64,000 nt of DNA from Bordetella sp. LUAb4. GTDB taxonomy: Bacteria > Pseudomonadota > Gammaproteobacteria > Burkholderiales > Burkholderiaceae_B. Of this stretch, positions 1-57,081 are shown piece by piece. Position numbers and translations under genes: made by a program. How positions within the stretch are numbered: position 1 is the stretch's first letter; each line of letters begins with the position of its first letter. The notes beneath the pieces were generated by a model. The model made no database searches. It had not been told where the DNA came from and was given only the letters and a program-made list of their open reading frames with translations. The DNA lies in NCBI RefSeq assembly GCF_021325795.1, contig NZ_JAHPZX010000002.1, positions 186,001 to 250,000 on the forward strand, given 5' to 3'.

Positions 1-3000
1 GTCTTCAGCAGGTTGAGCAGCGCATCCTGGACGATTTCGAGACGGCTGTCACCGTTCCACGTGCCGTCGGCGCTATCGCCCATGCTGCCCGAATGGTCGA
101 TCACCAACGCGACGTTATAGCTCTTGCCCGCGACGATGACGGTGTTGGTGCCACCCAGGTCGCCGACGATGATGTCGTTGCCGCCACCACCGTTGAGCGT
201 GTTGTCGGCATTGTTGGTGCCGGTCACCAGGTGATCGCCGGCCGTCAGGTTGAAGTTGTACGTCGACGAGGTGTCGTGACCGCCGTTGGCCGTACCGCCG
301 TTATCCTGCACCTGGAAGCCGAAGGACGTGTCGCCACCACCGGCTGCCGGGGTGTAGACCAGTTTGCCGGCGGCGATGTCGCTGGCCGAGATGGCCTGGC
401 CGTCGGTGACGGCATGACCGTCCAGGGTCAGCGTGCCGCTGGTGGGCAGACGGGTGATGATCACGCTCTGCAGGCTGTCGTGCTCGCCTGCGCTGTCGGA
501 GAAGGAGAAGTCGCCCGTGTGGAATACGACCGGGGTGGTGCCGCTGAACTGCGCGGCGCCGTCGGCAGCGGTCGGCGCGTCATTGGTGCCCTGCACTGTC
601 ACGTCCACGACCTGCGTGGTCGTGCCGCCGTGGCCGTCACTGACTTGTACCGTGAACTTCTCATGTACCTGGTCGGCACCGCTGAGCGCCTGCACCTTGG
701 CGTTGTCGATGGTGTAGGTCCACTTGCCGTCGGCGGCGATGGAGAACGTGCCGTACTTGCCGCCGCCATTGCTGTCGGCGATTTGGGCGTAGGTGAGATT
801 GTCGCCGTCGACGTCGTTGGCCGACACCTGGCCCGTCACCTTGCTATGCGCGTTGTCGTCCTCGATTACCGTACCGGTGGTCACGCTGGTGTTGCTGATC
901 GTCGGTGCGTCGTTGGTGCCTTGCACCGTGACGGTGACATCCTGCGGCTTCACACCGCCGTGGCCGTCGCTGACCTGCACGCTGAAGGTTTCGGTCTTCG
1001 ACACGCCTTCGGCCAACGATTGCGTCTTGGTGTTGTCGATGGTGTAGGTCCACTTGCCATCGCTGCCGATGGTGAAGGAACCGTAGGCGCCGGTGCCGTT
1101 CTTGCCGGCCACGAAGCCCCACGACAGCGTATCGCCGGTATCCACGTCGTTGGCGACCAGCTGGCCCGACGCCTTGTTATGGGCGTTGTCGTCCTCGATC
1201 ACCGTGCCGGTGGTCACGCTGGTGTTGCTGATCGTCGGCGCATCGTTGCTGCCTTGCACGGTGACGGTGACGTTCTGCGTCACCACACCGCCGTGGCCGT
1301 CGCTGACCTGGACGTTGAACGTCTCGGTCTTCGACACGCCTTCGCCCAGCGACTGCGTCTTCGTATTGTCGATCGTGTAGGTCCACTTGCCATCGCTGCC
1401 GATGGTCAGGTTGCCGTAGGCACCGGTGCCGTTCTTGCCGGCCACGAAGCCCCACGACAGCGTATCGCCGGTATCCACGTCGTTGGCGACCAGCTGACCC
1501 GACGCCTTGTTATGGGCGTTGTCGTCCTCGATCACCGTACCGGTGGTCACGCTGGTGTTGCTGATCGTCGGCGCATCGTTGCTGCCTTGCACGGTGACGG
1601 TGACGTTCTGCGTCACCACACCGCCGTGGCCATCGCTGACCTGGACGTTGAACGTCTCGGTCTTCGACACGCCTTCACCCAACGACTGCGTCTTGGCGTT
1701 GTCGATCGTGTAGGTCCACTTGCCATCGCTGCCGATGGTGAAGGAACCGTAGGCGCCGGTGCCGTTCTTGCCGGCCACGAAGCCCCACGACAGCGTATCG
1801 CCGGTATCCACGTCGTTGGCGACCAGTTGGCCCGACGCCTTGTTATGGGCGTTGTCGTCCTCGATTACCGTACCGGTGGTCACGCTGGTGTTGCTGATCG
1901 TCGGTGCGTCGTTGGTGCCTTGCACGGTGACGGTGACGTTCTGCGTCACCACACCGCCGTGGCCGTCGCTGACCTGGACGTTGAACGTCTCGGTCTTCGA
2001 CACGCCTTCACCCAACGACTGCGTCTTCGTATTGTCGATCGTGTAGGTCCACTTGCCATCGCTGCCGATGGTGAAGGAACCGTAGGCGCCGGTGCCGTTC
2101 TTGCCGGCCACGAAGCCCCACGACAGCGTATCGCCGGTATCCACGTCGTTGGCAACCAGCTGGCCCGACGCCTTGTTATGGGCGTTGTCGTCCTCGATCA
2201 CCGTACCGGTGGTCACGCTGGTGTTGCTGATCGTCGGCGCATCGTTGCTGCCTTGCACGGTGACGGTGACGTTCTGCGTCACCACACCGCCGTGGCCATC
2301 GCTGACCTGGACGTTGAACGTCTCGGTCTTCGACACGCCTTCACCCAACGACTGCGTCTTGGCGTTGTCGATCGTGTAGGTCCACTTGCCATCGCTGCCC
2401 AGGGTGAGGTTACCGTAGGCGCCATTACCGTTCTTGCCGGCAACGAACGACCACGACAGCGTATCACCCGTGTCGATGTCGCTGGCAACCAGTTGGCCGG
2501 ACGCCTTGTTATGGGCGTTGTCGTCCTCGGTCACCGTACCCGTGGTCACGCTGGTGTTGCTGATCGTCGGAACATCATTGGTGCCGTTGATCGTGATGGT
2601 GATCTGGCTTTCCGTGCCATCAGCGGACTGGACCGTGACGATATCCGTCATCGACTTGCCAACGCCCAGCGCCTGCACATCCTTGTCGCTGTTGTTCAGG
2701 ACGTAGTTCCAGTTGCCCGACGCGTCGATGGAGAACGTGCCGTGATCGGTGCTGACGTTGGTCTGCTTCTGGAAAACGGACTCGCCCGCGTCCGCATCCT
2801 TGACATCCAGCTCGCCCGACGCCCGTTGCGCCGAATAGCTGCCGTCCTCGGTGACCGAACCCTTGTCGTCGCCGGAGAGATGCGGCTTGATCACGGCGGC
2901 GTCGTTCTTGCCCTCGATGGTGATCGTCACCTTCTCGATGTCAAAACCACCGTGGCCGTCGCTGACCTGGACGTTGTAGGTTTCGGTCGCCGTCTTGCCC

Positions 3001-6000
3001 TCGCCCAGTGCCTGCGAAGCCTTGTCGTCGATGGTGTAGGTCCACTTGCCGTTGGCATCCACGGTGAGGGAACCATACGTGCCCTTGCCGCCGCCGACCA
3101 CCGCCCACGTGTGGGTGTCATTCGTATCGACGTCGGTCACCGACAACTGGCCCGTGGCCGTCTTGGTCGTGTCTTCGACCACCTTGCCGGCAGCGGTGCC
3201 GCTGATCACCGGCGCGTCGTTCACGCCGGTAATGGTGATGACGACCTGGCTGGTGGTGCCATCCGCCGACTTGACCGTGATGGTATCGGTCATCTTCTCG
3301 CCAGCGCCCAGGGCCTGTACGTCCTTGTCGCTGTTGTTCAGGACGTAGTTCCAGTTGCCCGACGTATCGATGGAGAACGTGCCGTGGTCGGTCGCGGCAT
3401 TGGTTTGCTTCTGGAAGCTGGATTCACCCGCATCCGCATCCTTGACATCCAGGTCGCCCGAAGCGCGTACGCCGAAGTAGCCGCCGTCTTCCGTCACCGA
3501 ACCCTTGTCATCGCCGGGGCGATTCGGGCTGATCACGGCCGCGTCATTGGTACCTTGGATGGTAATCGTCACCTTCTCGGTGTCGAAGCCGCCATGACCG
3601 TCGCTGACCTGGACGTAGTAGTACTCGGTCGCCGTCTTGCCTTCGCCCAGCGACTGCGATGCCTTGTCATCGAGGGTGTAAGTCCACTTGCCGGTGGCAT
3701 CCACCGCGATGGAGCCATACGTGCCCTTGCTGCCGCCCACCACCGACCAGGTATGGGTGTCGGTGGTATCGACGTCGGCGACCGACAACTGGCCGGACAC
3801 CGTCTTGACGGAGTCCTCGACCGTCTTGCCGGTGACCACGCCGCTGATGGCCGGTTCGTCGTTGGTGCCAATGATGGTGATGGCCACCTGGCTTTGCGTG
3901 CCGTCGGCGGACTTGACCGTGATGGTGTCGGTCATCTTCTGGCCCGAGGCCAGCGCCTGCACCGTGGGATCGCTGCTGTCCAGGACATAGGTCCAGACAC
4001 CCGTCGCGCCGATCGTGAACGTACCGTGCTCGGTCTTGACGTTGTTCTGGACCTGGAAGCTCGATTCGCCGGAATCGACATCCTTGACGTCCAGATTGCC
4101 GGCCGTCCAACCGGCCAGGAAGCCACCGTCTTCATAGACGGTGCCCTTGTCGTCGCCCGCGTTGTGCGGCGTGATCACAGCGGCGTCGTTGGTGCCTTCG
4201 ACGGTGATGGCCACCTTCTGCGTGTCGACGCCGCCCTGGCCATCGCTGACCTGGACGTAGTAGTACTCGACAGCCGTCTTGCCGGCGCCCAGCGACTGCG
4301 CCGCCGCGTTGTCCAGCGTGTACGTCCACTTGCCCGTGGCCGCGTCCACCGCGAAGCTGCCGTAGGCGCCCTTGCCGTCGCCGTTGACCGACCACGTATG
4401 GGTATCGAGCACGTCCACATCGCTCACGGTCAGTTGACCGGTGGCGCTGTACGTCTTGTCTTCCACCACCGTGCCGGCGGCCACGCCACCGATCACCGGG
4501 GCGTCATTGGTGCCCGTGATGTACACCGTCACCTGCGAAGGCGTGCCGTCCGCGGAGTACACCGTGAACTGGTCCTTCACCAGCTGACCTTCGCTGAGCC
4601 CTTGCACGGCGTCGCCGGCATTGTTCAGGGCGTAGTGCCAGTTGCCGTTGGCATCGAGGGTGAACGTGCCGTAGGTGCCGGCCGTGCCGCCTTGCACCTG
4701 GAATACCGCCTGACCGGCGTCCGGATCGACCACGTCCAGCTTGCCGCCGGCCTGCTGGTACTTGCCGTCTTCGGCCACGACACCCACGTCACCCACCGAA
4801 CCATGGGGCGTGATGATGGCGGCGTCGTCCGTGCCCTGGATGGTGACGGTGACTTCCTGCACGCTCTTGCCGCCGCTGCTGTCCTCGACCTCGACCTTGT
4901 AGGTTTCCTGGATGGAATCCTTGTTGGTCAGGGCCTGCGCCGCAGCGTTGTCCAGCGTGTAGGTCCACTTGCCCGTGGCGGGATCCACCGTGAAGGTGCC
5001 GTAGGTGCCCGTGCCGGCACCCACCACGCTCCAGGAATGCGTATCGCTGGTGTCGACATCGCTGACGTTCAGCTGGCCGGTCACCGACTTGATGTCGTCT
5101 TCCTTGACGGTACCGACGGCTTCGCCGCTGATCTCCGGCAGGTCATTGGTGCCCTGGATGGTCACGACGATCTGGCTTTCGGTGCCGTCGAAGGACTTGA
5201 CGGTAATGGTTTCCGTCAGGTGTTCGGTCGCGCCCAGCGCCTGCACGTCGCCGTTGGCGTTGTTCAGCGTGAAGGTCCAGTTGCCCTTGGCATCGATGGA
5301 GAACGTGCCATGCTCGGTGGCGACATTGGTCTGCGCCTGGAAGGACGCCTGGCCTTGATCCGCGTCGGTGACGTTGAGCTTGCCGCCGGTTCCCAGGGTG
5401 CCATCTTCCACCACGGCGCCGATCTTGGTGCCGGTGATGATGGCCGCGTCATTGGTGCCCTGGACCGTGATGGTCACGGTCTGGGTATCCAGGCCACCGT
5501 GGCCGTCGCTGACCAGGACGGTGAATTTCTCGGTGGCGGTATCGGCGGCGCCCAGCTTCTGCGCGGCGGCATTGTCCAGGGTGTAGGTCCACTGGCCGTT
5601 CTGGTCGATGGCGAGCGAGCCGTAGGCGCCCTTGCTGCCCAGCACGCTCCAGCTGGCGCTGTCATGCGCGTCGGGGTCGGCGGCAAGCAGTTGGCCGGTA
5701 GCCGACTTCACCACGTCTTCCTGTACCGCACCCGCGGCCTGGCCGCTGATGACCGGCGCGTCGTTGGTGCCGACCACATACACCGTTACCTGGAACGTGG
5801 TGCCGTCGGCGGAGGCGACCGTGAACTTCTCGGTCTTGGTCTCGCCCAGGCCCAACGCCTGCACATTGGCGGCGTCATTGTTCAGGGCATACGTCCACTT
5901 GCCGCTGGCGTCGATGGAGAACGCGCCATACGTGCCGGCCGTGTCCTTCTGCACCTGGAACACCGCCTGGCCCGCATCCGGATCGGTCACGTCCAGCTTG

Positions 6001-8825
6001 CCGCCGGTGGACTTGATCAGGTCTTCGGTGGTCAGGCCCACGCCGTCGAACAGGCCGTGCGGCTTGATGATGGCGGCGTCGTCCGTGCCCTGGATGGTGA
6101 CGGTGACGGTCTGGCTGGTGGTGCCGCCATGGTTGTCGGCGACCTGGACCGTGTAGGTTTCCTGGATCGAGTCCTTGGACGTCAGGGCCTGCGCGGCCTT
6201 GTTGTCCAGCGTGTACGTCCACTTGCCGTTGGCATCGACACTGAAGCTGCCGTAGGTGCCCTTGGTGGCGCCCACCGTGCTCCAGGTGTGCGTATCGCCC
6301 GCGTCGACGTCGCTGACGGTCAATTGGCCGGTAGCGGTCTTGATGCCATCTTCCTTCACCGTGCCGGCAGCGGGACCGGCGATTTCGGGCAGGTCATTGG
6401 TACCGACCACGGTAACCGTGATGTCGGCGGTGGTGCCGTCGATGGTCGTGACGTGGAAGACTTCGGTCTCGGTCTGACCGGCGGCCAGCGCCTGCACGTT
6501 GGTGGCGTCGTTGCTCAGCTTGTAGGACCAGTTGCCGTCGGCGTCGACACTGAACGTGCCGTACTTGCCGGCCGCATCGGTTTGCGCCACGAAGTGGGCC
6601 TGGCCGGCGTCCGGATCGACGACGTCCAGCTTGCCGCCGGCTGCCAGCGTGGTGTCTTCCTTGACCGCACCCGCGTCGGCGCCATCTTCATGCGGCGTGA
6701 CGACCGCGCCATCATCCGTGCCCTGCACGGTGACGGTGACTTCCTGGGTGGTCACGCCACCGTGGCCGTCATCGACCTCAACGGTAAACGTCTCCTTGAT
6801 GGCATCCTTGGACGTCAGGGCCTGAGCCGCGTCATTGTCGATGACATACGTCCACTGGCCGGTCGCGGGATCGACGGTGAGCGAGCCGTAGGCGCCCTTG
6901 CCGTCGCCCTGCACGGCCCACGTGTGGGTGTCGGTGGTGTCGACATCAGCCACCGTCAGTTGGCCGGTGGCGGTCTGGGCGCCGTCTTCCGTCACGCCGC
7001 CGGCAGCCTCGCCGCTGATGGTCGGCTTGTCGTTGGTACCGTCGATGGTCACGGTCACCGTGCTGGTGGTGCCGTCGATGGAGGTGACCGTGAAGGTCTC
7101 GGTCAGCTGCTCGCCGGCCGCCAGGGCCTGCACCTTGGCGTCGGTATTGTCCAGCGTATAGTGCCAGTTGCCGTTGGCGTCGAGGCTGAACGCGCCATGC
7201 TGGCCGGCCACGTTGGTCTGCACCACGAAGGCGGCCTGGCCGGCATCCGGGTCGACGATGTTCAGCTTGCCGGAAGTCTCCAGCAGGCCGTCTTCCTTGA
7301 CGGCACCACGGTCGCCGCTGTCGCCGTCGGGCGTGATGACGGCAACATCATCGGCACCGTTGACCGTCACCGTCAGGGTGGCGGTGGAGGTGCCGCCTTC
7401 GCCGTCGGTCACCGTGTAGGTGATGGAGGTGGTGGCGCTTTCGCCGCCGACCAGGCCCTTGAAGTCTTCGCCCGGATTGAAGGTGTAGCTGCCGTCGGCG
7501 TTCAGCGTGAAGCTGCCGCCATGGTCGCCGGCCACGGCCTGGCCGACCAGGCTGGTGTTGCCGTTGACGGCACCCACCGACAGCGGATCGCCGTCGGGGT
7601 CGGTGTCATTGCGCAGCACGCCGTTGGCGGCCGATACTTCGACGCCGCTGTCTTGCGTGGCGACAGCACTGTCGCCCTGGGCGGTGGGCGCGGGATTGCT
7701 GACGTCCCAGCTGAAGGTCTGGCTGGACGTGGCGCCGCTCAAGTCGGTAGCGGTCACGATGACCGTGTACACGCCATTGTTGCCGCCTTGCGAAGCGGAA
7801 TGATCGACGTTGCCGGAGATGACGCCGGTGACGGGATCGATGGTCAGTCCGGGCGGCAGACCGGTGGCCGAGAACGTCAGGCGATCGCCGTTGTCGACAT
7901 CGGCGAAGTTGCCGGACACGTTCAGGTTGACGTTGTTCTGCGCATCCACCGCGTTCTGGGTCTGCACGGCGGTCGAGGTCGGCGCATCGTTCAGGCCATT
8001 GACGGTGACCGTCAGGTTGGCGGTCGACGTGGCGCCGAACGGATCGGTCACGGTGTAGCTGACCGACGACGTGGCGCTCTGGCCGGCGGCCAATTGATGG
8101 AAGGCATCGCCCGGATTGAAGACGTAGCTGCCGTCGGCGAACACCGTGAAGGTGCCGCCGTTGCTGCCGGCCACGGTCACGCCGCCGGTCACCATGGTGG
8201 CGGTGCCCACCGACACGATGGCCAAGGCGTCGCCGTTGGGATCCGTGTCGTTGGTCAGGATGTTGCCGCTGACGGTGGCGCGCTCGGTGGTGGTCTGGAC
8301 GTCATTGGCCGCATTGGGCGTGTCGTTCAGCGCGGTGGTCGACGAAGCGGCATCGGCGATACCGACGTTCACGCCGGGGGCCGCGGAAACACCGTTCACC
8401 AGATCCAGCGGGGTGGTCGATTCAACGACGCGGGCCAGGCGCACGAAGCTGCTGCCGCCGCCGTCGCCGCCACCGGAAATCAGGGCAGCCGTCGGTTCGA
8501 GGTTATCGAACGGATCCTGGCCGGAATTCAGGGCGGCCAGCAGGCGGTCCGAATCGGTGCCTTGCGGGGGCGCCACGCTGGCTTCCTTGGCATCGACCGG
8601 TTGGCCGGCCATGTCGGCGTTGAACGAGACGTCGCGGTTCTCGCCGATCAACAGGGGCAACCCATCATTCACCTGCAGGGCGACGGTCGCGCCACTGGCG
8701 GTGACCACATCGCTGTCGGCCGGCACACGGCTGCCGACGTGCAGCTCGGTCAAGGAACCATCGGCATTACGGATCCAAGCACGACCGGTGACTTGGGTGA
8801 CGACTGCGGGTTGGGTATTGGCCAT
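1..8825 (-). CDS. Giant LapA/BrtA-like RTX repeat adhesin, C-terminus beyond window
   Basis: At least 2941 codons are visible with no stop; the gene leaves the left edge. The start is the ATG at 8825, preceded by GGAG eight bases upstream. Residues 1-110 match the retention module of LapA-type adhesins (MANTQPAVVTQVTGRAW, VGSRVPADSDVV, LLIGENRDVSF). A TAAL motif at residues 112-115, just before a Gly/Ser linker, sits where LapG-family proteases cut LapA. Cadherin/VCBS-like Ig domains follow to about residue 500, then many ~100-residue VCBS-type repeats. Five copies at about 870-2580 are nearly identical with an exact 333-bp period. At the left edge come an RTX-like stretch (NTLNGGGGNDIIVGD) and the start of a von Willebrand A domain with MIDAS motif DHSGS. 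Expected role: surface-held, c-di-GMP-controlled biofilm adhesin secreted by the type I system next door. Confidence 0.93.
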   Translation of the reverse strand, partial: MANTQPAVVTQVTGRAWIRNADGSLTELHVGSRVPADSDVVTASGATVALQVNDGLPLLIGENRDVSFNADMAGQPVDAKEASVAPPQGTDSDRLLAALNSGQDPFDNLEPTAALISGGGDGGGSSFVRLARVVESTTPLDLVNGVSAAPGVNVGIADAASSTTALNDTPNAANDVQTTTERATVSGNILTNDTDPNGDALAIVSVGTATMVTGGVTVAGSNGGTFTVFADGSYVFNPGDAFHQLAAGQSATSSVSYTVTDPFGATSTANLTVTVNGLNDAPTSTAVQTQNAVDAQNNVNLNVSGNFADVDNGDRLTFSATGLPPGLTIDPVTGVISGNVDHSASQGGNNGVYTVIVTATDLSGATSSQTFSWDVSNPAPTAQGDSAVATQDSGVEVSAANGVLRNDTDPDGDPLSVGAVNGNTSLVGQAVAGDHGGSFTLNADGSYTFNPGEDFKGLVGGESATTSITYTVTDGEGGTSTATLTVTVNGADDVAVITPDGDSGDRGAVKEDGLLETSGKLNIVDPDAGQAAFVVQTNVAGQHGAFSLDANGNWHYTLDNTDAKVQALAAGEQLTETFTVTSIDGTTSTVTVTIDGTNDKPTISGEAAGGVTEDGAQTATGQLTVADVDTTDTHTWAVQGDGKGAYGSLTVDPATGQWTYVIDNDAAQALTSKDAIKETFTVEVDDGHGGVTTQEVTVTVQGTDDGAVVTPHEDGADAGAVKEDTTLAAGGKLDVVDPDAGQAHFVAQTDAAGKYGTFSVDADGNWSYKLSNDATNVQALAAGQTETEVFHVTTIDGTTADITVTVVGTNDLPEIAGPAAGTVKEDGIKTATGQLTVSDVDAGDTHTWSTVGATKGTYGSFSVDANGKWTYTLDNKAAQALTSKDSIQETYTVQVADNHGGTTSQTVTVTIQGTDDAAIIKPHGLFDGVGLTTEDLIKSTGGKLDVTDPDAGQAVFQVQKDTAGTYGAFSIDASGKWTYALNNDAANVQALGLGETKTEKFTVASADGTTFQVTVYVVGTNDAPVISGQAAGAVQEDVVKSATGQLLAADPDAHDSASWSVLGSKGAYGSLAIDQNGQWTYTLDNAAAQKLGAADTATEKFTVLVSDGHGGLDTQTVTITVQGTNDAAIITGTKIGAVVEDGTLGTGGKLNVTDADQGQASFQAQTNVATEHGTFSIDAKGNWTFTLNNANGDVQALGATEHLTETITVKSFDGTESQIVVTIQGTNDLPEISGEAVGTVKEDDIKSVTGQLNVSDVDTSDTHSWSVVGAGTGTYGTFTVDPATGKWTYTLDNAAAQALTNKDSIQETYKVEVEDSSGGKSVQEVTVTIQGTDDAAIITPHGSVGDVGVVAEDGKYQQAGGKLDVVDPDAGQAVFQVQGGTAGTYGTFTLDANGNWHYALNNAGDAVQGLSEGQLVKDQFTVYSADGTPSQVTVYITGTNDAPVIGGVAAGTVVEDKTYSATGQLTVSDVDVLDTHTWSVNGDGKGAYGSFAVDAATGKWTYTLDNAAAQSLGAGKTAVEYYYVQVSDGQGGVDTQKVAITVEGTNDAAVITPHNAGDDKGTVYEDGGFLAGWTAGNLDVKDVDSGESSFQVQNNVKTEHGTFTIGATGVWTYVLDSSDPTVQALASGQKMTDTITVKSADGTQSQVAITIIGTNDEPAISGVVTGKTVEDSVKTVSGQLSVADVDTTDTHTWSVVGGSKGTYGSIAVDATGKWTYTLDDKASQSLGEGKTATEYYYVQVSDGHGGFDTEKVTITIQGTNDAAVISPNRPGDDKGSVTEDGGYFGVRASGDLDVKDADAGESSFQKQTNAATDHGTFSIDTSGNWNYVLNNSDKDVQALGAGEKMTDTITVKSADGTTSQVVITITGVNDAPVISGTAAGKVVEDTTKTATGQLSVTDVDTNDTHTWAVVGGGKGTYGSLTVDANGKWTYTIDDKASQALGEGKTATETYNVQVSDGHGGFDIEKVTITIEGKNDAAVIKPHLSGDDKGSVTEDGSYSAQRASGELDVKDADAGESVFQKQTNVSTDHGTFSIDASGNWNYVLNNSDKDVQALGVGKSMTDIVTVQSADGTESQITITINGTNDVPTISNTSVTTGTVTEDDNAHNKASGQLVASDIDTGDTLSWSFVAGKNGNGAYGNLTLGSDGKWTYTIDNAKTQSLGEGVSKTETFNVQVSDGHGGVVTQNVTVTVQGSNDAPTISNTSVTTGTVIEDDNAHNKASGQLVANDVDTGDTLSWGFVAGKNGTGAYGSFTIGSDGKWTYTIDNTKTQSLGEGVSKTETFNVQVSDGHGGVVTQNVTVTVQGTNDAPTISNTSVTTGTVIEDDNAHNKASGQLVANDVDTGDTLSWGFVAGKNGTGAYGSFTIGSDGKWTYTIDNAKTQSLGEGVSKTETFNVQVSDGHGGVVTQNVTVTVQGSNDAPTISNTSVTTGTVIEDDNAHNKASGQLVANDVDTGDTLSWGFVAGKNGTGAYGNLTIGSDGKWTYTIDNTKTQSLGEGVSKTETFNVQVSDGHGGVVTQNVTVTVQGSNDAPTISNTSVTTGTVIEDDNAHNKASGQLVANDVDTGDTLSWGFVAGKNGTGAYGSFTIGSDGKWTYTIDNTKTQSLAEGVSKTETFSVQVSDGHGGVKPQDVTVTVQGTNDAPTISNTSVTTGTVIEDDNAHSKVTGQVSANDVDGDNLTYAQIADSNGGGKYGTFSIAADGKWTYTIDNAKVQALSGADQVHEKFTVQVSDGHGGTTTQVVDVTVQGTNDAPTAADGAAQFSGTTPVVFHTGDFSFSDSAGEHDSLQSVIITRLPTSGTLTLDGHAVTDGQAISASDIAAGKLVYTPAAGGGDTSFGFQVQDNGGTANGGHDTSSTYNFNLTAGDHLVTGTNNADNTLNGGGGNDIIVGDLGGTNTVIVAGKSYNVALVIDHSGSMGDSADGTWNGDSRLEIVQDALLNLLK

Positions 8826-8944
8826 TTGGATTGCTCCGGTTTTAGTTGTCGCAATACTAAAGATGGGCCGCCAAAGGCGGTATTGTCCTCAAGGACAGGT
8901 TTTCGAAATTTCTTGCGCAAGACCGGCGAGGCAGCGCCCGCGCC

Positions 8945-8979
8945 AAAGAAAAACGCGCCGGCGGCATACGCCCGGCGCG
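8945..8979 (-). terminator. Intrinsic terminator after the LuxR-type gene
   Basis: On the minus strand CGCGCCGG (8979-8972) pairs with CCGGCGCG (8961-8954) across a ten-base loop and is followed by TTTTTCTTT. It lies between the regulator stop at 9044 and the adhesin start at 8825, so it would end or attenuate exporter-operon transcripts. The adhesin probably also has its own promoter in 8830-8940. Confidence 0.65.
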
Positions 8980-9043
8980 AGAGCTCGGCAGCCGGCGCGG
9001 GATGCCGGCGGAGGAATCAGAAAAGGGGCGGGTCGGCAAAGGC

Positions 9044-9673
9044 TCAGACGCGCGAGATGCCGTGCACGCGTAGCGCCAGCTGCAGCCGGTCGCTCACGCC
9101 CAGCTTCTCGAAGACCGCCGACAGGTGCGCCTTGACCGTGCGCTCGGTGATACCCAGCGTGGCGGCGATTTCCTGGTTGCTGTCGCCCACCGCTGCCTGG
9201 CGCGCCACCATGTTCTCGCGTTCGGTCAGTACGTCGTTGTGCCAGGCCTCCTGCGTGCCGGCACGGCTGTCGACCAGGCGCAGCAGACGCTGCACCAGCG
9301 ACCGCCCCATCCAGATCTCGCCGGCACCGACCACGCTCAGCACTTGGGACAGGGCTGTCACGGGTGCATAGGTATGGCAATAGCCCACCGCGCCGGCAGC
9401 CAGCGCCTTGGTGCCCTGCTCGTCATGCGGCCGCGCGCTGGCCACCACCACCTTCAAGCCGGTGATGGCGCCGTTCCACTGCTCGCTACCCATGGCGGGC
9501 ATGCGTGGCAGGTCCGTATCCACGATGGCCAGCCCGCGGCGCTGTTCACGCCAGCGGCCCAGGTCGGCCAGGGTACGCCCACGGGCGGGCAGCCAGCCCT
9601 GCGTGTCCAGGCCCGACCAATGTTTCCAGAGCAAATCATCGTGCGTGACGCACAGAATCGGGGTGACTTGCAT
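9044..9673 (-). CDS. LuxR-family response-regulator-like transcription factor in the adhesin operon
   Basis: The protein has 209 aa. The N-terminal half has the fold signature of a receiver: acidic pair in VTHDD, possible phospho-acceptor in IVDTDLP, and a Ser in VVVASA. The conserved Lys expected near GAVGYCHTYAP is missing, so phosphotransfer may be altered. The C-terminal half (about residues 140-205) is a GerE/LuxR helix-turn-helix with LTERENMVARQAAVGDSNQE and TERTVKAHLSAVFEKL. It sits 22 bases after the HlyD-like gene and upstream of the adhesin gene, where related type I adhesin loci often carry such a regulator. It probably controls adhesin expression; no cognate kinase is in the window. 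Confidence 0.87.
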   Translation of the reverse strand: MQVTPILCVTHDDLLWKHWSGLDTQGWLPARGRTLADLGRWREQRRGLAIVDTDLPRMPAMGSEQWNGAITGLKVVVASARPHDEQGTKALAAGAVGYCHTYAPVTALSQVLSVVGAGEIWMGRSLVQRLLRLVDSRAGTQEAWHNDVLTERENMVARQAAVGDSNQEIAATLGITERTVKAHLSAVFEKLGVSDRLQLALRVHGISRV

Positions 9674-50548: not shown

Positions 50549-51451
50549 TTAGCCGAACGTGGATATCGTCTTGGCCAGATTCACCAACTTGCGTATCACC
50601 GTCTGGCTTTGGTCCACGCTCCACGCGGCATTGAATGGAATCCGCGGAAACGGAGGCGCGCTTTTCAAGATCATCAGCTCACCGCGTTTGAGTTCTGCTT
50701 CGACCAACGGGTACGTCATCAGGCCGACGCCGGTGCCGCTGCATATCAATTGTTTCAGGGTCAGGATATTGCTGCAGATGTCGACCTTGATTCTCAGGTT
50801 ATGGTCCCTGATGGTCTTCATCAGGATCGGATACAAAGGCGACTCCTTCGACAGGGACCACACCGGTTTACTGCTTAGCAGCTCCAGCCAGTTTTCCTGG
50901 CAGTAAGCGCCCTCTCGGCCCACGAGGGCCGGCGCCCCGACCAGCACCACGTCTACCGCGCCGATGGGCTCTACATGGAAACGGTCCGACTTCAGCGAGG
51001 GCGTGGCCATGAACACCAGATCCAGCTGTCCCGCTTCCAGTTTGCTCACGCTGAGCGAGGTCTGACCCACCTCCACGTCGAAACTCAACTGCGGCATGGC
51101 GGCACGAGCCGCGGTAATGAATTGGGAAAACCAGGTTTGTCCCACCAGACCGGCGATGCCCAGGCAGATCAGGCCGGATGCATGCGTGGCATCGTCGAGG
51201 GAATAAATGACGTCGTCGATGGCGGCCAGCAAGGGCTTGATCTGCTGGACCAGTTCGCGCCCTTGCGTGGTCAAGTCCATCTTGCGGCCACGCTTGTGGA
51301 ACACCGGAAACCCCAAGCGCCCTTCCAGCTCGCGCATACGCGCCGAGACAGTGGGCTGGGTCGTGTACATGTGGTCAGCGGCGGCCTGGAAGCTCCCCAA
51401 CTGTGCGATATGGCACAGCGTTTGGAGATGAACGATATTTAGTTTTGACAT
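50549..51451 (-). CDS. LysR-family regulator convergent with the GMC/ALDH/Bug operon
   Basis: The product has 300 aa from the ATG at 51451. The N-terminus is a standard winged helix: NIVHLQTLCHIAQLGSFQAA, HMYTTQPTVSARMRELEGR, LGFPVFHKRGRKMDL. The effector domain runs from about residue 92. It is convergent with the oxidation operon and divergent from the small secreted-protein gene, and may regulate either. Its closest style is the CbbR/GcvA-like group; no ligand is inferred. Confidence 0.9.
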   Translation of the reverse strand: MSKLNIVHLQTLCHIAQLGSFQAAADHMYTTQPTVSARMRELEGRLGFPVFHKRGRKMDLTTQGRELVQQIKPLLAAIDDVIYSLDDATHASGLICLGIAGLVGQTWFSQFITAARAAMPQLSFDVEVGQTSLSVSKLEAGQLDLVFMATPSLKSDRFHVEPIGAVDVVLVGAPALVGREGAYCQENWLELLSSKPVWSLSKESPLYPILMKTIRDHNLRIKVDICSNILTLKQLICSGTGVGLMTYPLVEAELKRGELMILKSAPPFPRIPFNAAWSVDQSQTVIRKLVNLAKTISTFG

Positions 51452-51579
51452 ATTTCCGAGTCGTCGCGAAAGACGAAGGCAAATTTTGCCTGAAATCCAC
51501 GCGGGTATGCCGCTTGCACATGAGCAGAACTTTTTTCGACGTCCCATATCGAAACGTAGTTCACCCAGTGGAGAGAACC

Positions 51580-52074
51580 ATGAAGCAAGAACCGACTCGT
51601 AGTCTGGCCCGCCCTCATACCGGCCGTTCCCAGGCGCATTTCCATCGTTCCCTCATGGTCACCGCCCTGGCTGGCGCCGTGCTTTGGGCCGCCAGCCTGT
51701 CCGGCGCCCACGCCGCACTGCCTGAAACCCAGAAGCAAGGAAATGTGGAATACGTCACCGGCGGCATCGGTCTGGATGAATCGCAATCCCTCAAGGCCGC
51801 CGAGAAGAGCTATCCGCTATCGCTACTGTTCGCCCGCAAGCTCGATGGCAAGAACGACTACACCGCGGACGTAAAGGTCGTGATTACCGACGCCAAGGGT
51901 GCCACGATATTGAACGCCACCAGCGGCGGCCCCTATATGCTGGTGAAATTGCCCGAAGGCGAATACAAGGTTTCCGCCACGCTGGACGGCAACGAGCAGA
52001 CCCGCCAGGTATCGGTAAAGGGTAATGGCTCGGCACACGCGGGGTTCGAGTGGAGCGCGAAGAGCACCAAGTAA
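51580..52074 (+). CDS. Small secreted beta-sandwich protein (carboxypeptidase-regulatory-like)
   Basis: The product has 164 aa from the ATG at 51580 behind GGAGAG. A long N-terminal region is followed by a signal peptide ending near SGAHAALPE. The mature part resembles a carboxypeptidase regulatory-like/PEGA domain (DVKVVITDAKGATILNATSG, LVKLPEGEYKVSATLDG, QTRQVSVKGNG). It should be periplasmic or exported. It ends at a bidirectional terminator shared with the EspA-like gene. Confidence 0.82.
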   Translation: MKQEPTRSLARPHTGRSQAHFHRSLMVTALAGAVLWAASLSGAHAALPETQKQGNVEYVTGGIGLDESQSLKAAEKSYPLSLLFARKLDGKNDYTADVKVVITDAKGATILNATSGGPYMLVKLPEGEYKVSATLDGNEQTRQVSVKGNGSAHAGFEWSAKSTK

Positions 52075-52087
52075 GCGTTGCGTCCGT

Positions 52088-52124
52088 AAAAAAAGCGCGG
52101 GCCATTACAGCCCGCGCTTTTTTT
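52088..52124. terminator. Bidirectional intrinsic terminator
   Basis: Seven A, then GCGCGGGC, a CATTACA loop, GCCCGCGC and seven T. It works on both strands and separates the small secreted-protein gene (+) from the EspA-like gene (-). Confidence 0.93.
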
Positions 52125-52140
52125 CAATGGCCGAGGGAGA

Positions 52141-52710
52141 TTATCGGCCCAGGGAACCGGAGATGCTGTTGAGCGCCTGGTTTTCCTTGGACAGAATGCC
52201 GTTCATACCGGTCAGGTACGCCTGCGCGGCCTGCGCTTCACGCGTCAGATCGTTGGTTTCCAAACTGTTCATGTTGTTGTAGGACGTCAAGCTCGAATCC
52301 ATGTTGGCGATCAGGTCATCCAACTGCTGTTTCGAGGTGTCCTTGGACAGTCCCTTGCCACCGCAATACGTCGCGGGGTCCCAGCCGATGTCATTCAGCG
52401 CATCCTGGGTGGCCTTGATCTGTTTGTCGAGATCGCTGTCCGAGGTACCGTCCTTCTTGTCCTTGAGCTTGGTGCCGCCATCGGCGCCCGGCTTGAAGCC
52501 TTGATCCAGGGCCCGCACCTGGTTCTGGGCACTGCGGATTCTTTCCTGGTCGGAATTCAGCTGCCTGACTCTCAGTGCCCTTTGGCGCGTGTTTTCCGTC
52601 GCACCCGCGAACATCACGGCCATGATCGCGTAGACGATCTCGAACACGTCACCCGTGGCAATCGCCGCCGCCAGTTTGGGGTCGGCCGACGACACATAAC
52701 CGTTGGGGTT
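52141..52710. repeat. Near-identical 3' end of EspA-like copy 1
   Basis: These ~570 bases, which encode the EspA-like domain, match 54361-54930 in the same orientation with only scattered differences, while the rest of the two genes has diverged. A directly repeated segment of this size can recombine or undergo gene conversion. Confidence 0.9.
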
Positions 52711-54174
52711 GGTGTCTGTTGAATCGGAAGGGGGAGCCGGATTCGAATTGGACGAATTCCCAAGTGTCTCGTGCGGAAATTCGTAAGCGCCAGAAGTCGT
52801 CGTATACGGATTGGTACGGCGCTCTTCCTTCTGATCCAGATATTTCTGCATCAGGTTCATCTGCTTTTTCAGATCCGGGGCACGGGAATCCTTGTCGGAT
52901 TCGGAGGGCATCGACTGCTTGAGCTGCCCCAGAAGCCCCTTCATCTTGGTATAGCTGTCGACCGTGCCGGACCCGCTGCCGGTGCTGCCTTTCAATGCCT
53001 GGGCAGCAAGACTGGTGAAGATCTTCTGCTCGGCGGGGCTGAGGGCGCTGTGGTCGGGGCCAGAGTAGTAGTTCCTGCTGGAGAACATCTGCCGCTTGCT
53101 CGGCCCCACCTCCGGGGCGCCAGTCGCCTCACGCTTGCGCCGCCCGCGAGCGTTGCCGCCCGCCGCCGCTGCACGATCATCGGCCGAGGGCTTGCCGTCC
53201 GTATCATCGCCATCCTCGTTGGTGTCCGAGTCCGATGTCTGCTTGCCTGTGATCGGCGCTTGCGCCATGCCGCGCCCGATGATGCTCGGGGCAAACATTC
53301 CATCCGCGCCATCTTCGAATTCATCCGCGCCACTTCCCGCGGCGGCACTACCGGTGCCGCTCGCCGCGGACCGCTTGGAAATGTTGCCGGGACGCTCGGA
53401 GGTGAACAGACGCCGCGGTGCCGCGGCAGACTGGTTCGCTGCCCCGGCCGTGACAGCGGCGGCGGCATGCGCGTGTGCCGTGGGCAGCGTGGCGCCCGCG
53501 GCTTGGGACAAGGTGGCGCCCGGCATGGGCGTGTTGCCGTTAGGGGCAGCGCCCGCCGCCTGGCCCATCAGTTGGGACGCAGGCTGACGGCTCCCGAAGG
53601 TTTGCGTGCCCGCCCCAGCTTGATTCGCGGCCGCGTTGCCGTTTCTGGTTGCGGCGTGACTCGCGTCGCTGCCGCGTGCCGAGGCCTGGGTATTGCCTTG
53701 CTTGGCCGAGGCCTGAGTATTGCCTTGCTTGGCCGAGGACGTAGGCGTGTCGTGCTTGTCCTTGCCGGAGCCATCGTGAGCCGAACTGTCCTTGCCGGCG
53801 CCTTTCTTGTTGGGCGCGGACCCCGTGTCGTGGCGATCAGCACCATGGCCTTCCTGCTTGCCTTGGAGGCTATCCGCGCCTTGATGACGCGAGCTTTGCT
53901 GTTCGCCTGATTTGTCATTCTTGCCGTTGTCCGACTCCTGCGCGGCCGCATCCGAGTCCTTGCTTGCATTGCGGATCAATCGCTTTACGAAACCCGCTGC
54001 TGGCGCGTCTTCGGACACCGCCAGATCCGGATGAGGCAGATCGTTGGATACATCATCAGGAAGGTCTGACTCACTCGTCAGTCCGGTGAAGTTGGACGAC
54101 TTGACGCCGTCCGGGATGAAAGCCGCCTGCCTGAAGGCACTGGCATTGAAATTGGAATTTTGGATTACTGCCAT
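52141..54174 (-). CDS. Very long EspA-like secreted protein, copy 1 (candidate type III substrate)
   Basis: The product has 677 aa from the ATG at 54174, with AGGTGGCGAG directly upstream. It has no signal peptide. Residues 1-60 are Asn/Ser-rich (MAVIQNSNFNASAF) and conserved in copy 2. Residues 60-335 are low complexity (Ala, Gly, Ser, Lys, Gln, Asp), with repeats such as SAKQGNTQA. A helical block (340-460) opens with a basic RGRRKRE motif. The last ~185 residues resemble EspA in length and order: a hydrophobic helix (DVFEIVYAIMAVMFAGATEN), a coiled coil, a ND..-ATYCGGKG middle and a C-terminal coiled coil ending SISGSLGR (EspA ends in a similar SISLGK). Role as filament or tip subunit is inference. 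Confidence 0.78.
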   Translation of the reverse strand: MAVIQNSNFNASAFRQAAFIPDGVKSSNFTGLTSESDLPDDVSNDLPHPDLAVSEDAPAAGFVKRLIRNASKDSDAAAQESDNGKNDKSGEQQSSRHQGADSLQGKQEGHGADRHDTGSAPNKKGAGKDSSAHDGSGKDKHDTPTSSAKQGNTQASAKQGNTQASARGSDASHAATRNGNAAANQAGAGTQTFGSRQPASQLMGQAAGAAPNGNTPMPGATLSQAAGATLPTAHAHAAAAVTAGAANQSAAAPRRLFTSERPGNISKRSAASGTGSAAAGSGADEFEDGADGMFAPSIIGRGMAQAPITGKQTSDSDTNEDGDDTDGKPSADDRAAAAGGNARGRRKREATGAPEVGPSKRQMFSSRNYYSGPDHSALSPAEQKIFTSLAAQALKGSTGSGSGTVDSYTKMKGLLGQLKQSMPSESDKDSRAPDLKKQMNLMQKYLDQKEERRTNPYTTTSGAYEFPHETLGNSSNSNPAPPSDSTDTNPNGYVSSADPKLAAAIATGDVFEIVYAIMAVMFAGATENTRQRALRVRQLNSDQERIRSAQNQVRALDQGFKPGADGGTKLKDKKDGTSDSDLDKQIKATQDALNDIGWDPATYCGGKGLSKDTSKQQLDDLIANMDSSLTSYNNMNSLETNDLTREAQAAQAYLTGMNGILSKENQALNSISGSLGR

Positions 54175-54360
54175 CTCGCCACCTATTTTGCGAAATTAAT
54201 TGAAAATAGAGCGCCCGCCGCAGCGATCGGGCGGGCACTCGGCCGGCCCGTCTGTTCATGGTGCTGACAGACTTGGGCTCGATTTGGATAAAAATGTCCT
54301 CCACGCCACCGCATTCGCGGTGGCATCGCGGCAATGACGCCGGACCCTCCGTTTGCTTGC

Positions 54361-54930
54361 TTATCGGCCCAGCGATCCCGCGATGCTGTTGAGCGCCTGG
54401 TTTTCCTTGGACAGAATGCCGTTCATACCGGTCAGGTACGCCTGCGCGGCCTGCGCTTCACGCGTCAGATCGTTGGTCTCCAAACTGTTCATGTTGTTGT
54501 AGGACGTCAAGCTCGAATCCATGTTGGCGATCAAGTCATCCAGCTGCTGTTTCGACGTGTCTGGGGAAAGGCCCTTGCCACCGCAATATGTCGCGGGGTC
54601 CCAGCCGATGTCATTAAGCGCATCCTGGGTTGCCTTGATCTGCTTGGCGAGATCGGCGTCCGAGGTACCGTCCTTCTTGTCCTTGAGCTTGGTGCTGCCA
54701 TCCGCGCCCGGCTTGAAGCCTTGGTCCAGGATCCGCACCTGGTTCTGCGCACTGCGGATTTGCTCCTGGTCGGAATTGAGCTGCCGCACTCTCAACGCCC
54801 TTTGGCGCGTGTTTTCCGTCGCACCGGCGAACATCACAGCCATGATCGCGTAGACGATCTCGAACACGTCACCCGTGGCAATCGCCGCCGCCAGTTTGGG
54901 GTCGGCCGACGACACATAACCGTTGGGGTC
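54361..54930. repeat. Near-identical 3' end of EspA-like copy 2
   Basis: Partner of the repeat at 52141-52710, same orientation, 2.2 kb apart. The encoded C-terminal domains differ at only a few residues. Confidence 0.9.
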
Positions 54931-56373
54931 GGTGTCGTCGAAGTCGGGCGTGGGATCGGACGACGGATAGGACCCCGTGTCCTCCGGATCGAGGGGACCA
55001 CCGCCATCACCGCCGCGCCCCGCGTTCGACGTTGTCTGGTGGGAATTGGTACGACGTTTTTCCTTCTGCTCCAGAAACTTCTCAAGCAGCTTGAGCTGGT
55101 TCTGCAAATCCGGGAAGCGAGAATCCTTGTCGGAATCAGAGGGCATGGACTGCTTGAGTTGCCCAAGAATCCCCTTCAACTTGCCATAGCTACCAACTGT
55201 CCCAGACTCGCTGTCGGTGCTGCCTTTCAATGCCTGGGCAGCCAGGCCAGTAAAGGTCTGCTGCTCGGCGGCGCTGACGGCGCTGTAGTCGGGGCCGGAG
55301 GAGTAGTTCCTGCTGGCGAACATCTGCCGCTTGCTCGGTCCCACGTCCGGAGCGCCAGTCGCCTCGCGCTTGCGCCGCCCGCGCATGTTGCCGGCGGCGC
55401 CGGCCGCGCGATCATCGCCCGACGGACTGCCGTCCGTATCACCGCCACTGTCGTTGGTATCCGAGTCCGATGTCTGCTTGCCGGTGACCGGCGCTTGGGT
55501 GCCGCACCCGCTGATGCTCGCGGCAAAAATTTCATCCGCGCCATCTTCCCCGCCTCCCGCGGCAGCACTGCCGGTGCCGCTCGCGCCGGACCGCTTGGAC
55601 GTGTTGCCCGGACGCTGGGACGTGAAGAGTCCCCGCGGTGCCGCTGCAGCCTGGTTCGCTGCCCCCGCCAAGGAAGCGGCAGCCGCGTGCGCGGACGCCG
55701 AGGGCAGCATGGCACCCGCGGCCTGGGGCAAGGTGGCGCCCGGCATGGGCGTGTTGCCGTTAGGCGCGGTTCCGCCCGCCATCCGGCCCATCATTTGGGA
55801 GGCAAACTGCCCGGTGCCGATGGTCTGCGTACCCCGCCCAGCGCCCCCTGGGTTCGCGGCCGCATTGCCGTTTCTGAGTGCGGCGTGACTCGGGTCGCTG
55901 CCGCGTGTCGAGGCCTGGGTATTGCCTTGTTTGGCCGAGGACGTAGGCGCATCGTGCTTGTCCTTGCTGGAACCACCGTGGGCTGCGCCGTCCTTGCCGG
56001 TGCCGTTCCTGTTCAAGGCCGGCCCCCCATCGTGCCGATCAGCAGCCTGGCCTTCCTGCTTACCCTTGGCGCCAGACGATGCTTGATCGCGACCCTGCTG
56101 TTCGCCCGATTTGGCCGTCTTGCCGTTGCCTGCGCCTTGCGCGGCCACATCCAGATCCTTGCTTGCGTTACGAACCAATCGCTTTACGAAAGCGGCGGCT
56201 GGAGCGTCTTCGGACGACGCCAGATCCGGATGAGGCAGATCGCCCAGTTCGTGATCGGGATGTGCTGACTCACTCGTCAGTCCGGTGAAGTTGGACGGCT
56301 TGCTGCCGTCCGAGATGAAGGTTGCCTGGCTCAGGGTGCCATTATTGAAATTGGAATTGCGAATCTCTGCCAT
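54361..56373 (-). CDS. Very long EspA-like secreted protein, copy 2 (candidate type III substrate)
   Basis: The product has 670 aa from the ATG at 56373, with the same AGGTGGCGAG leader as copy 1. Architecture matches copy 1: conserved N-terminal 60 residues (MAEIRNSNFNNGTLSQ, SNFTGLTSES), a long disordered Ala/Gly/Ser stretch, RGRRKRE near residue 330, a helical block, a variable linker rich in Gly/Asp/Pro, and the EspA-like C-terminal domain ending SIAGSLGR. It is the first gene of the pair; the leader carries no obvious terminator before copy 1, so both may be one transcript. No secretion apparatus or chaperone gene is nearby. Confidence 0.78.
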   Translation of the reverse strand: MAEIRNSNFNNGTLSQATFISDGSKPSNFTGLTSESAHPDHELGDLPHPDLASSEDAPAAAFVKRLVRNASKDLDVAAQGAGNGKTAKSGEQQGRDQASSGAKGKQEGQAADRHDGGPALNRNGTGKDGAAHGGSSKDKHDAPTSSAKQGNTQASTRGSDPSHAALRNGNAAANPGGAGRGTQTIGTGQFASQMMGRMAGGTAPNGNTPMPGATLPQAAGAMLPSASAHAAAASLAGAANQAAAAPRGLFTSQRPGNTSKRSGASGTGSAAAGGGEDGADEIFAASISGCGTQAPVTGKQTSDSDTNDSGGDTDGSPSGDDRAAGAAGNMRGRRKREATGAPDVGPSKRQMFASRNYSSGPDYSAVSAAEQQTFTGLAAQALKGSTDSESGTVGSYGKLKGILGQLKQSMPSDSDKDSRFPDLQNQLKLLEKFLEQKEKRRTNSHQTTSNAGRGGDGGGPLDPEDTGSYPSSDPTPDFDDTDPNGYVSSADPKLAAAIATGDVFEIVYAIMAVMFAGATENTRQRALRVRQLNSDQEQIRSAQNQVRILDQGFKPGADGSTKLKDKKDGTSDADLAKQIKATQDALNDIGWDPATYCGGKGLSPDTSKQQLDDLIANMDSSLTSYNNMNSLETNDLTREAQAAQAYLTGMNGILSKENQALNSIAGSLGR

Positions 56374-57081
56374 CTCGCCACCTATTTATGCGAAATTTAT
56401 TTAAAGGTTGAGTTTCCGCTGCAGGACCGCGTCCACATTTGGAAGAACTCGAAAGGGATACTGCAACTCCCTTAATCGGTTCCATATGAGAAAAACCTTG
56501 GTCCTACCCGCTGCGTAAATGGCACATCAAACGAGTCAGGATTCTTGTGGCAGCCCCCACGAACGCCTCTCGGAGGCACGGTTTTCATAGAGCGGATACT
56601 GCCTGTAATGACGCTGCTGACGAAGCGCAAAACGCGCGTCCCTGCGCTTGATTCAGTAATGCGGGAATTTTCTGAAATTGGTTTAGCGCAGCACGCGCAC
56701 AACATAATTGGGGGTCGGAGCCGAATATGCATCGCTTATTGAATGCGCGATTATTGCGGCAAGCGGCACATACGGGCACCCCTACCTTTAAGCGATTATT
56801 AAGTTTGAATTAAGCGAATATTAAGATGGCATTAAAAGAGCCGCTTGCAAGCATTAAGCGTCTATTAAGCAAGCATTAATCTTTCAGCATTCAAGCAAGC
56901 GCTTGGCGCGCGCGGCCGCATGCGTCTGTCCACTGGACAGACTTGGACAATTCGTTGGTGGAGGATTGCCGAATCGGCCTGCATGCGCATGCGTGCGCGT
57001 GCGCGCGGCGCCATGATGGTCCGATCACATGACCGCGGTCGTACCGGGGCTACGCTCGTGAAGGGATCACGGTCCTGAAGT
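56374..57081. other. Long intergenic region upstream of the EspA-like pair
   Basis: About 700 bases without a supportable gene. Two short frames (56472-56732 minus, 56545-56742 plus) have no ribosome site. The notable content is the 11-bp phased array at 56788-56880 and an alternating purine-pyrimidine tract (TGCATGCGCATGCGTGCGCG) at about 56981-57007. Confidence 0.6.
56788..56880. promoter_or_regulatory. Array of TTAAG half-sites at an exact 11-bp period
   Basis: TTAAG starts at 56788, 56799, 56810, 56821, 56854 and 56865; TTAAA starts at 56832 and TTAAT at 56876. All fall on one 11-bp lattice, with only position 56843 unoccupied. OmpR/PhoB-family regulators bind direct repeats at 11-bp spacing (the CtrA site TTAA-N7-TTAA is one example). 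The array lies 415-507 bases upstream of EspA-like copy 2. Confidence 0.7.

What the first reader, a model, noticed from the sequence alone, without database searches (positions are those of the whole stretch)
52141..56373. Tandem pair of giant EspA-like proteins with no type III apparatus nearby
Two 670-677 aa proteins carry a C-terminal ~185-residue domain that follows EspA in length, helix order and ending (SLGR versus EspA's SLGK), behind ~480 residues of mostly disordered sequence. EspA-type filament subunits are normally about 190 aa. A filament or tip domain with such an extension, in duplicate and away from a secretion cluster, would be new. The EspA match is from memory of the sequence, so the family link is inference.
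Basis: partly seen in the sequence, partly recalled or inferred. Interest (0 to 1): 0.82.

Follow-up and report, generated by a model that had tools for sequence, protein, structure and literature searches.

The report
Giant type III secretion tip-filament proteins
A bacterium related to Achromobacter carries, far from its molecular syringe, two extra genes for an oversized version of the protein that appears to build the syringe's outer filament, with a third oversized copy inside the syringe cluster itself.

Summary
The two ORFs are real: 677 and 670 aa, minus strand, with identical ribosome-binding sites and purifying selection on the last ~180 residues. A third paralogue (666 aa, 76% identical in the domain) occupies the bsp22/sctA slot of an injectisome cluster elsewhere in the same genome, as do 684-, 600- and 354-aa relatives in three genomes; two more have ~200-aa proteins there. 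EspA is Foldseek's first PDB match (E only 0.05), and a profile of Achromobacter-type SctA proteins matches (hhalign 92%). So the genome does have a type III apparatus: the pair is a dispersed duplicate standing where relatives have an oxidoreductase gene, and W2 keeps part of the slot gene's upstream region. What is unusual is the ~490-residue N-terminal extension (mostly disordered, then a small helical module), seen in three genomes of one genus-level group, while SctA frames in 34 other genomes of the family stay at 474 aa or less. Most likely these are alternative filament subunits with the extension outside the tube; that part is inference. New variant of a known kind.

The parts
52141..54174 (-). 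giant SctA-like protein 1 (W1, 677 aa, 70 kDa)
54361..56373 (-). giant SctA-like protein 2 (W2, 670 aa), upstream gene of the pair
52144..52683 (-). W1 C-terminal tip-filament (SctA/Bsp22/EspA-type) domain, residues 498-677
54364..54903 (-). W2 C-terminal tip-filament domain, residues 491-670
52813..53052 (-). W1 middle helical module, residues 375-454 (helices predicted at 380-454)
   Evidence: alignment
53053..53979 (-). W1 disordered Ala/Gly/Ser-rich stretch, residues 66-374
53980..54174 (-). W1 N-terminal segment, residues 1-65; the start MAxIxNSxF is shared by W1, W2, the cluster copy and the HZ34 copy, with a similar start in the other two; inferred secretion signal
   Evidence: function inferred
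53131..53148 (-). basic RGRRKR in W1; an R-x-[KR]-R motif is at the aligned place in 5 of 5 giants
56477..56498 (-). upstream element AGGTTTTTCTCATATGGAACCG of W2, shared with the upstream regions of cluster copies in G000, G001, G002
56661..56677 (-). second upstream element (TTTCAGAAAATTCCCGC) of W2, shared with the cluster copies of G000 and G005
56368..56385 (-). W2 ribosome-binding site and start
54169..54186 (-). W1 ribosome-binding site and start

Best explanation
W1 and W2 are giant SctA proteins: extra subunits of the tip filament that caps the needle of the Bsc-like injectisome encoded elsewhere in this genome. Shown: the C-terminal ~180 residues are homologous to the protein in the bsp22/sctA slot of that cluster and are predicted as a two-long-helix tip-filament domain; the cluster has 15 T3SS components recognised by Pfam; the pair is intact and under purifying selection on the domain, and W2 keeps part of the slot gene's upstream region. 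Inferred: they are secreted by that T3SS, the C-terminal domain co-polymerises into the filament, and the ~490-residue N-terminal extensions, which cannot fit in the lumen, lie outside as a flexible coat or are cut off; the pair gives the cell alternative subunits with different coats. The 75-residue helical module just before the domain may act as a built-in chaperone, as the N-terminal hairpin of IpaD-type tip proteins does.
For: Slot: third copy, domain at G000:C1:72278-72835 (+), 76% identical, beside a SycD/LcrH-type chaperone (TIGR02552, E 3.6e-21, 75 bits, under its 104.8 cut-off), SctE (PF04888, 7.9e-12) and SctJ; SctC, D, E, F, J, L, N, O, P, Q, R, S, T, U, V all recognised. Same slot in 3 other genomes (684, 600, 354 aa), 1.9-3.0 kb from sctV in all four, and ~200-aa proteins in 2. 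Published bsc gene order puts Bsp22 there (PMC7498569, passages). Fold: helices 9-17, 20-67, 125-186, pLDDT 82; Foldseek rank 1 in the PDB = EspA filament 7khw, prob 1.00, TM by target 0.56; Bsp22 AlphaFold helices I26-A74 and Y144-M204 (PMC12607632, passages). Profiles: 60-row SctA profile against the 6-row giant profile 91.6%, E 8.2e-7 for the pair, reversed control 0.5%; the three-row SctA profile's only match in the 6.66 Mb genome is W1, E 5.6e-5; the W1 domain hits g2 (Achromobacter-type) proteins at 1.3e-6 to 1.8e-4. Selection: dN/dS 0.106 on the domain. Upstream element.
Confidence: 0.55

Rival explanations
1. T3SS-secreted effectors or adhesins that borrow a tip-type C-terminal domain as a carrier; the pair's N-terminal part is the working part and it never enters the filament.
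For: The pair lies away from the cluster; the disordered part holds basic R-x-[KR]-R motifs.
Against: The cluster copy with the same architecture stands in the tip slot, and profile searches found no other SctA-like protein in this genome, so the long form must serve as tip protein there; the domain, not the extension, is what is conserved.
Confidence: 0.17
2. A pentameric tip (IpaD/LcrV-like) rather than a filament: the middle helical module is a self-chaperone and the extension hangs off a short cap.
For: Helical module directly before the coiled-coil domain; IpaD-type tips have an N-terminal self-chaperone hairpin (PMC10333785, passages); one chance-level hit to SipD, E 1.6.
Against: Foldseek ranks EspA first; the protein of this slot in Bordetella, Bsp22, polymerises into filaments (PMC12607632, abstract).
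Confidence: 0.12
3. Relic duplicates: the pair is a drifting copy of the cluster gene with no role.
For: Only 1 of 6 genomes of the genus has the pair; W2's -10-like stretch differs and W1 lacks the element.
Against: Both ORFs intact; dN/dS 0.106 on the domain between the copies and 0.24-0.28 against the cluster copy; start regions identical.
Confidence: 0.1
4. Unrelated long-helix surface proteins; the EspA likeness is a generic coiled coil.
For: Fold scores within the range of unrelated helical chains; no curated family match.
Against: Position in the tip slot in four genomes, and the profile match with its reversed control.
Confidence: 0.06

Closest known systems
Bsp22 (SctA) of the Bordetella bsc injectisome
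   Same: Gene slot beside a SycD-type chaperone and translocators; long helices of 48 and 62 residues here against I26-A74 and Y144-M204 in Bsp22
   Different: Bsp22's last helix ends at M204; here about 490 extra residues stand in front; no Btc22/AxlG-like gene found (no positive control); two extra copies off the cluster
SctA proteins of Achromobacter-type T3SS (upstream of an axlG-like gene)
   Same: Weak but significant similarity, profile probability 92%; tandem SctA-like ORFs are common there too (24 of 30 loci)
   Different: Mostly about 180-310 aa (a few predicted starts give up to 416); no stop-to-stop frame over 474 aa in the 34 other matching genomes
EspA of enteropathogenic E. coli
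   Same: First PDB match; small kinked N-terminal helix followed by a long coiled coil (PMC10333785, passages)
   Different: No Pfam EspA (PF03433) match; the EspA chain is numbered only to 192
IpaD/SipD tip proteins
   Same: Helical module N-terminal to the coiled coil
   Different: Only a chance-level sequence hit (SipD, E 1.6); none among the 50 rows listed

Membership tests
SctA/Bsp22-type T3SS tip-filament protein | Gene in the tip slot, next to SycD-type chaperone and translocators | tested here: met
   Met for the third copy and 3 relatives; the window pair itself is not in the slot
SctA/Bsp22-type T3SS tip-filament protein | Two long helices around a small central region | tested here: met
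   (prediction) against the helix limits in PMC12607632
SctA/Bsp22-type T3SS tip-filament protein | Sequence relation to known SctA | tested here: met
   91.6%, reversed control 0.5%; 5.6e-5; against it, hmmsearch with the 60-row profile listed none of the giants at E<=1. That the g2 proteins are SctA rests on their place before a 98-aa and a TPR-chaperone gene and on PMC7614980
SctA/Bsp22-type T3SS tip-filament protein | Polymerises on the needle tip | not testable with these tools
   needs EM or fluorescence
SctA/Bsp22-type T3SS tip-filament protein | Secreted through the T3SS | not testable with these tools
   needs secretome of wild type and sctN deletion
EspA (Pfam PF03433) | Match to the family profile over its cut-off | tested here: not met
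   hmmscan found none; genome searches found none, but no control genome rang either
EspA (Pfam PF03433) | EspA fold | tested here: inconclusive
IpaD/SipD tip family | Fold match | tested here: inconclusive
   not among the 50 rows listed in each

The most novel reading that the evidence does not exclude
An injectisome whose tip filament is built from up to three giant subunit variants, each carrying ~490 mostly disordered residues outside the tube, so that the filament is a bristle-coated conduit whose surface can be changed by swapping subunits expressed from a second locus, with a self-chaperoning module replacing the usual tip chaperone.
Probability: 0.3. Interest if true: 0.78.

Novelty: new variant of a known kind. 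Interest (0 to 1): 0.55.

Why it matters
Bsp22 and EspA are about 200 residues, little more than the coiled-coil tube, and their permissive parts are internal loops (PMC12607632, passages). A natural family with a ~490-residue N-terminal extension, and a size series in the slot within one genus-level group (about 200, 354, 600, 666-684 aa), suggests that the tip protein tolerates a huge addition at its N-terminus. It lets one ask directly where the N-terminus of an SctA filament lies, whether large chains can be displayed on it, and why a cell would keep two more copies away from the secretion cluster.

Tried and rejected
Pfam/NCBIfam on the full proteins and on the domain: only chance-level rows. 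PDB sequence searches with the domain and with an eight-row profile: nothing convincing; a two-row profile of the G003/G004 slot proteins gave talin at 0.005, taken as a coiled-coil chance match. PF03433 over the own genome and a phylum sample of 398 genomes: no match, but no control genome rang, so uninformative. Foldseek with the full-length model (pTM 0.36) gave only unrelated helical proteins. The viral library gave phage proteins with scores like EspA's; I read these as generic coiled coils. IpaD/LcrV-type tips are not among the 50 rows listed, which does not exclude them; the translocator IpaB is. A first SctA profile held wrongly framed rows because some loci were not oriented as I assumed; its hits to the giants (0.007, 0.01) are not used. 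Rebuilt: 68 ORFs matched, 60 kept that cover more than 150 profile positions, 8 dropped. Middle module against the AxlG-like 98-aa proteins by hhalign: 0.2%, no relation. The domain in 72,556 plasmid records: no match. The class sample gave one other hit (G408, 6.2e-4, in a 127-aa frame), read as chance. A cleavage-site or nuclear-signal reading of the basic motif is kept only as a lead: shuffles of the same stretch hold such a motif 7-10% of the time and the five proteins are related.
Full report
What is there. The window holds two neighbouring minus-strand ORFs, W1 at 52141-54174 (677 aa) and W2 at 54361-56373 (670 aa); W2 is upstream of W1. Both carry the same ribosome-binding site and start, ATAGGTGGCGAGATGGCA, which occurs twice in the window against none in 100 shuffles. 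The proteins are 79% identical overall and 96% in the last 187 residues. By codon comparison the last 180 residues have dN/dS 0.106 (pS 0.206, pN 0.025), the disordered part 0.354. Synonymous divergence is lower in the last part (dS 0.24 against 0.38-1.2 elsewhere), so gene conversion may have helped to keep the ends alike; that is inference.

Domain plan. AlphaFold2 on the full protein (4 aligned rows) gives pLDDT under 50 for residues 1-374, 455-497 and 669-677, a helical module at 380-454, and a C-terminal domain from about 499. The domain alone has mean pLDDT 82 and pTM 0.61, with helices 9-17, 20-67, 89-105, 110-113 and 125-186. Bsp22 is described with helices I26-A74 and Y144-M204 joined by a mixed region, and its predicted structure is said to resemble EspA in spite of minimal sequence similarity (PMC12607632, abstract and passages). 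[quoted passage not shown]

The type III system. Searching the genus (6 genomes) with the domain finds it in 4 of 6: three copies in the window's genome and one each in three others. The FHIPEP family rings twice in 6 of 6, which fits one flagellar and one injectisome copy, and the four slot copies lie 1.9-3.0 kb from the second one. In the cluster of the window's genome (L015, L021) Pfam recognises SctF (PF09392), SctD (PF16697), SctV, SctE (PF04888), SctJ, SctL (PF06635), SctN (with PF18269), SctO (PF07321), SctP (HpaP), SctQ, SctR, SctS, SctT, SctU and the secretin SctC. The 666-aa giant stands between two small genes in the place of SctY and SctX (named by position only) and a TPR chaperone of SycD/LcrH type (TIGR02552 E 3.6e-21, 75 bits, under its cut-off of 104.8), followed by a 336-aa protein in the SctB place (no profile match that counts) and SctE. 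Published Bordetella order is BopN, Bsp22, Btc22, BcrH1, BopD, BopB, BcrH2, Bcr4, BscI, BscJ (PMC7498569, passages), so the giant is in the Bsp22 slot. The same review notes that in B. ansorpii three other genes stand at the bsp22 position (passages).

Family link by sequence. The domain matches 7 of 268 family genomes; 4 are those above and 3 belong to a neighbouring genus g2, at 1.3e-6, 6.4e-5 and 1.8e-4. The three g2 proteins are about 200 aa and are followed by a 98-aa gene and a TPR-chaperone gene; in Achromobacter the chaperone gene axlG is next to sctA in 98% of 208 genomes (PMC7614980, passages), so I take them as SctA. Searching back with their three-row profile, 35 of 268 family genomes match, and in the window's genome W1 is the only match (5.6e-5); the profile did not ring in G001-G005. 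A profile of 60 SctA ORFs against the six giant domains gives hhalign probability 91.6%, E 8.2e-7 for this one pair, over columns 44-144; the reversed giant alignment gives 0.5%; the two short slot proteins of G003/G004 together give 71.6% over 54 columns. Against this, hmmsearch with the same profile over 1,895 ORFs of the window and seven loci listed only the G004 slot protein (0.016) and one unrelated ORF (0.74), not the giants. hhalign of the giant domain with the short slot proteins is weak: 24.9% with G004, 0.9% with G003, 9.5% with both.

Where the pair came from. In G005 and G002 the genes on both sides of the pair (LysR, the 51403-52074 ORF, RF-1-domain protein, luciferase-like monooxygenase, thioredoxin; families) are in the same order with one gene of 352-380 aa in place of the pair; the G005 copy matches NADH:flavin oxidoreductase (PF00724, 9e-74). 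G001 has this gene at the same place between the 51403 ORF and the RF-1 protein. In G003 and G004 the matches of these two flanks end about 120 bp apart. The window has no copy of the oxidoreductase (best tblastn E 0.076); the best in the genome is 40% identical. In the single-contig genome G002 the T3SS giant (6.696 Mb) and this site (2.48 Mb) are megabases apart. The tree of five full proteins joins the cluster copy with the HZ34 copy (94/93, just short of the tool's mark) apart from W1+W2 (100/100); if G002 is the outgroup, the pair is older than the split of these two species or came from another lineage. In the domain-only tree this fork is unresolved.

Regulation. About 105-125 bp upstream of W2 lies AGGTTTTTCTCATATGGAACCG. 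A pattern written to fit both W2 and the cluster copies has this one match in the window, exact, against 0.01 expected with up to 3 mismatches. The cluster copies of G000, G001 and G002 carry it with CAACATA 15 bases after GGAACC; G005 has a variant. This recalls an ECF-sigma promoter (recalled, not tested); the ECF sigma factor BtrS activates bsp22 in Bordetella (PMC7498569, passages), and an ECF-type sigma gene lies beside the T3SS cluster here. W2 has CAGTATC at about that place, so activity is unproven. W1 has no such element and is probably co-transcribed with W2.

How it most likely works. The needle lumen is about 15 A wide and the EspA filament's is similar (PMC10333785, passages). With a rise of 4.6 A per subunit (recalled), lumen volume per subunit is about 800 cubic A, while 490 residues need about 64,000. 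So if the giants polymerise in bulk, the extension is outside the tube or is removed. Outside is the simplest reading: a coat of Ala/Gly/Ser-rich chain. An R-x-[KR]-R motif stands at the aligned place in 5 of 5 giants in a poorly conserved stretch; processing or surface binding are possible, neither shown. The middle module, traceable in all six proteins though reduced in G002, precedes the coiled coil as the self-chaperone hairpin does in IpaD-type tips (PMC10333785, passages). No relative of the AxlG-like protein was found in the 6 genus genomes (no positive control), but this includes the two with short slot proteins.

How rare. Domain matches: 4 of 6 genus genomes; no further giant among 268 family genomes; in a class sample of 369 only its own genome and one chance-like hit; two loci, both in genomes already counted, in a pattern-limited scan of 84,980 species genomes that may leave out the window's own; none in plasmids. 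Among the 34 other family genomes with SctA-profile matches the longest stop-to-stop frame listed is 474 aa. Of 30 loci fetched there, 24 hold two to four SctA-like ORFs within the few kb held, so duplication itself is ordinary.

In print. Searches of the open PMC library showed no title or abstract start that describes tip proteins of this size; I saw listings, and for the four papers named only abstracts or passages, so this is not proof of absence.

Noticed in passing
window 3-8888 (-), opposite the 3092-aa ORF 93-9371 (+): The huge plus-strand ORF is probably antisense (GC3 0.60); the minus strand is open for 2962 aa with GC3 0.86 and reads like a repeat-built adhesin, running off the window (reading by eye).
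   Followed up: partly
window 52075-57081: The pair stands where three relatives have one flavin oxidoreductase gene; the best copy left in this genome is only 40% identical.
   Followed up: yes
L053-L082, for example L061, L077, L078: SctA-like ORFs occur as two to four neighbours in 24 of 30 loci of this family.
   Followed up: partly
L021:10254-10850 (-): ECF-type sigma factor gene beside the T3SS cluster, a candidate reader of the GGAACC element.
   Followed up: no
window 53678-53738: 27-bp tandem repeat (2.3 copies) inside W1 giving a repeated AKQGNTQAS, present once in W2: slippage in the disordered part.
   Followed up: no
L015:12646, L016:13072, L017:12634, L018:12929: A second highly conserved upstream element (GCGGGCGTCGTNCGTAGTAACG) of the four cluster copies, not found in the window.
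   Followed up: no
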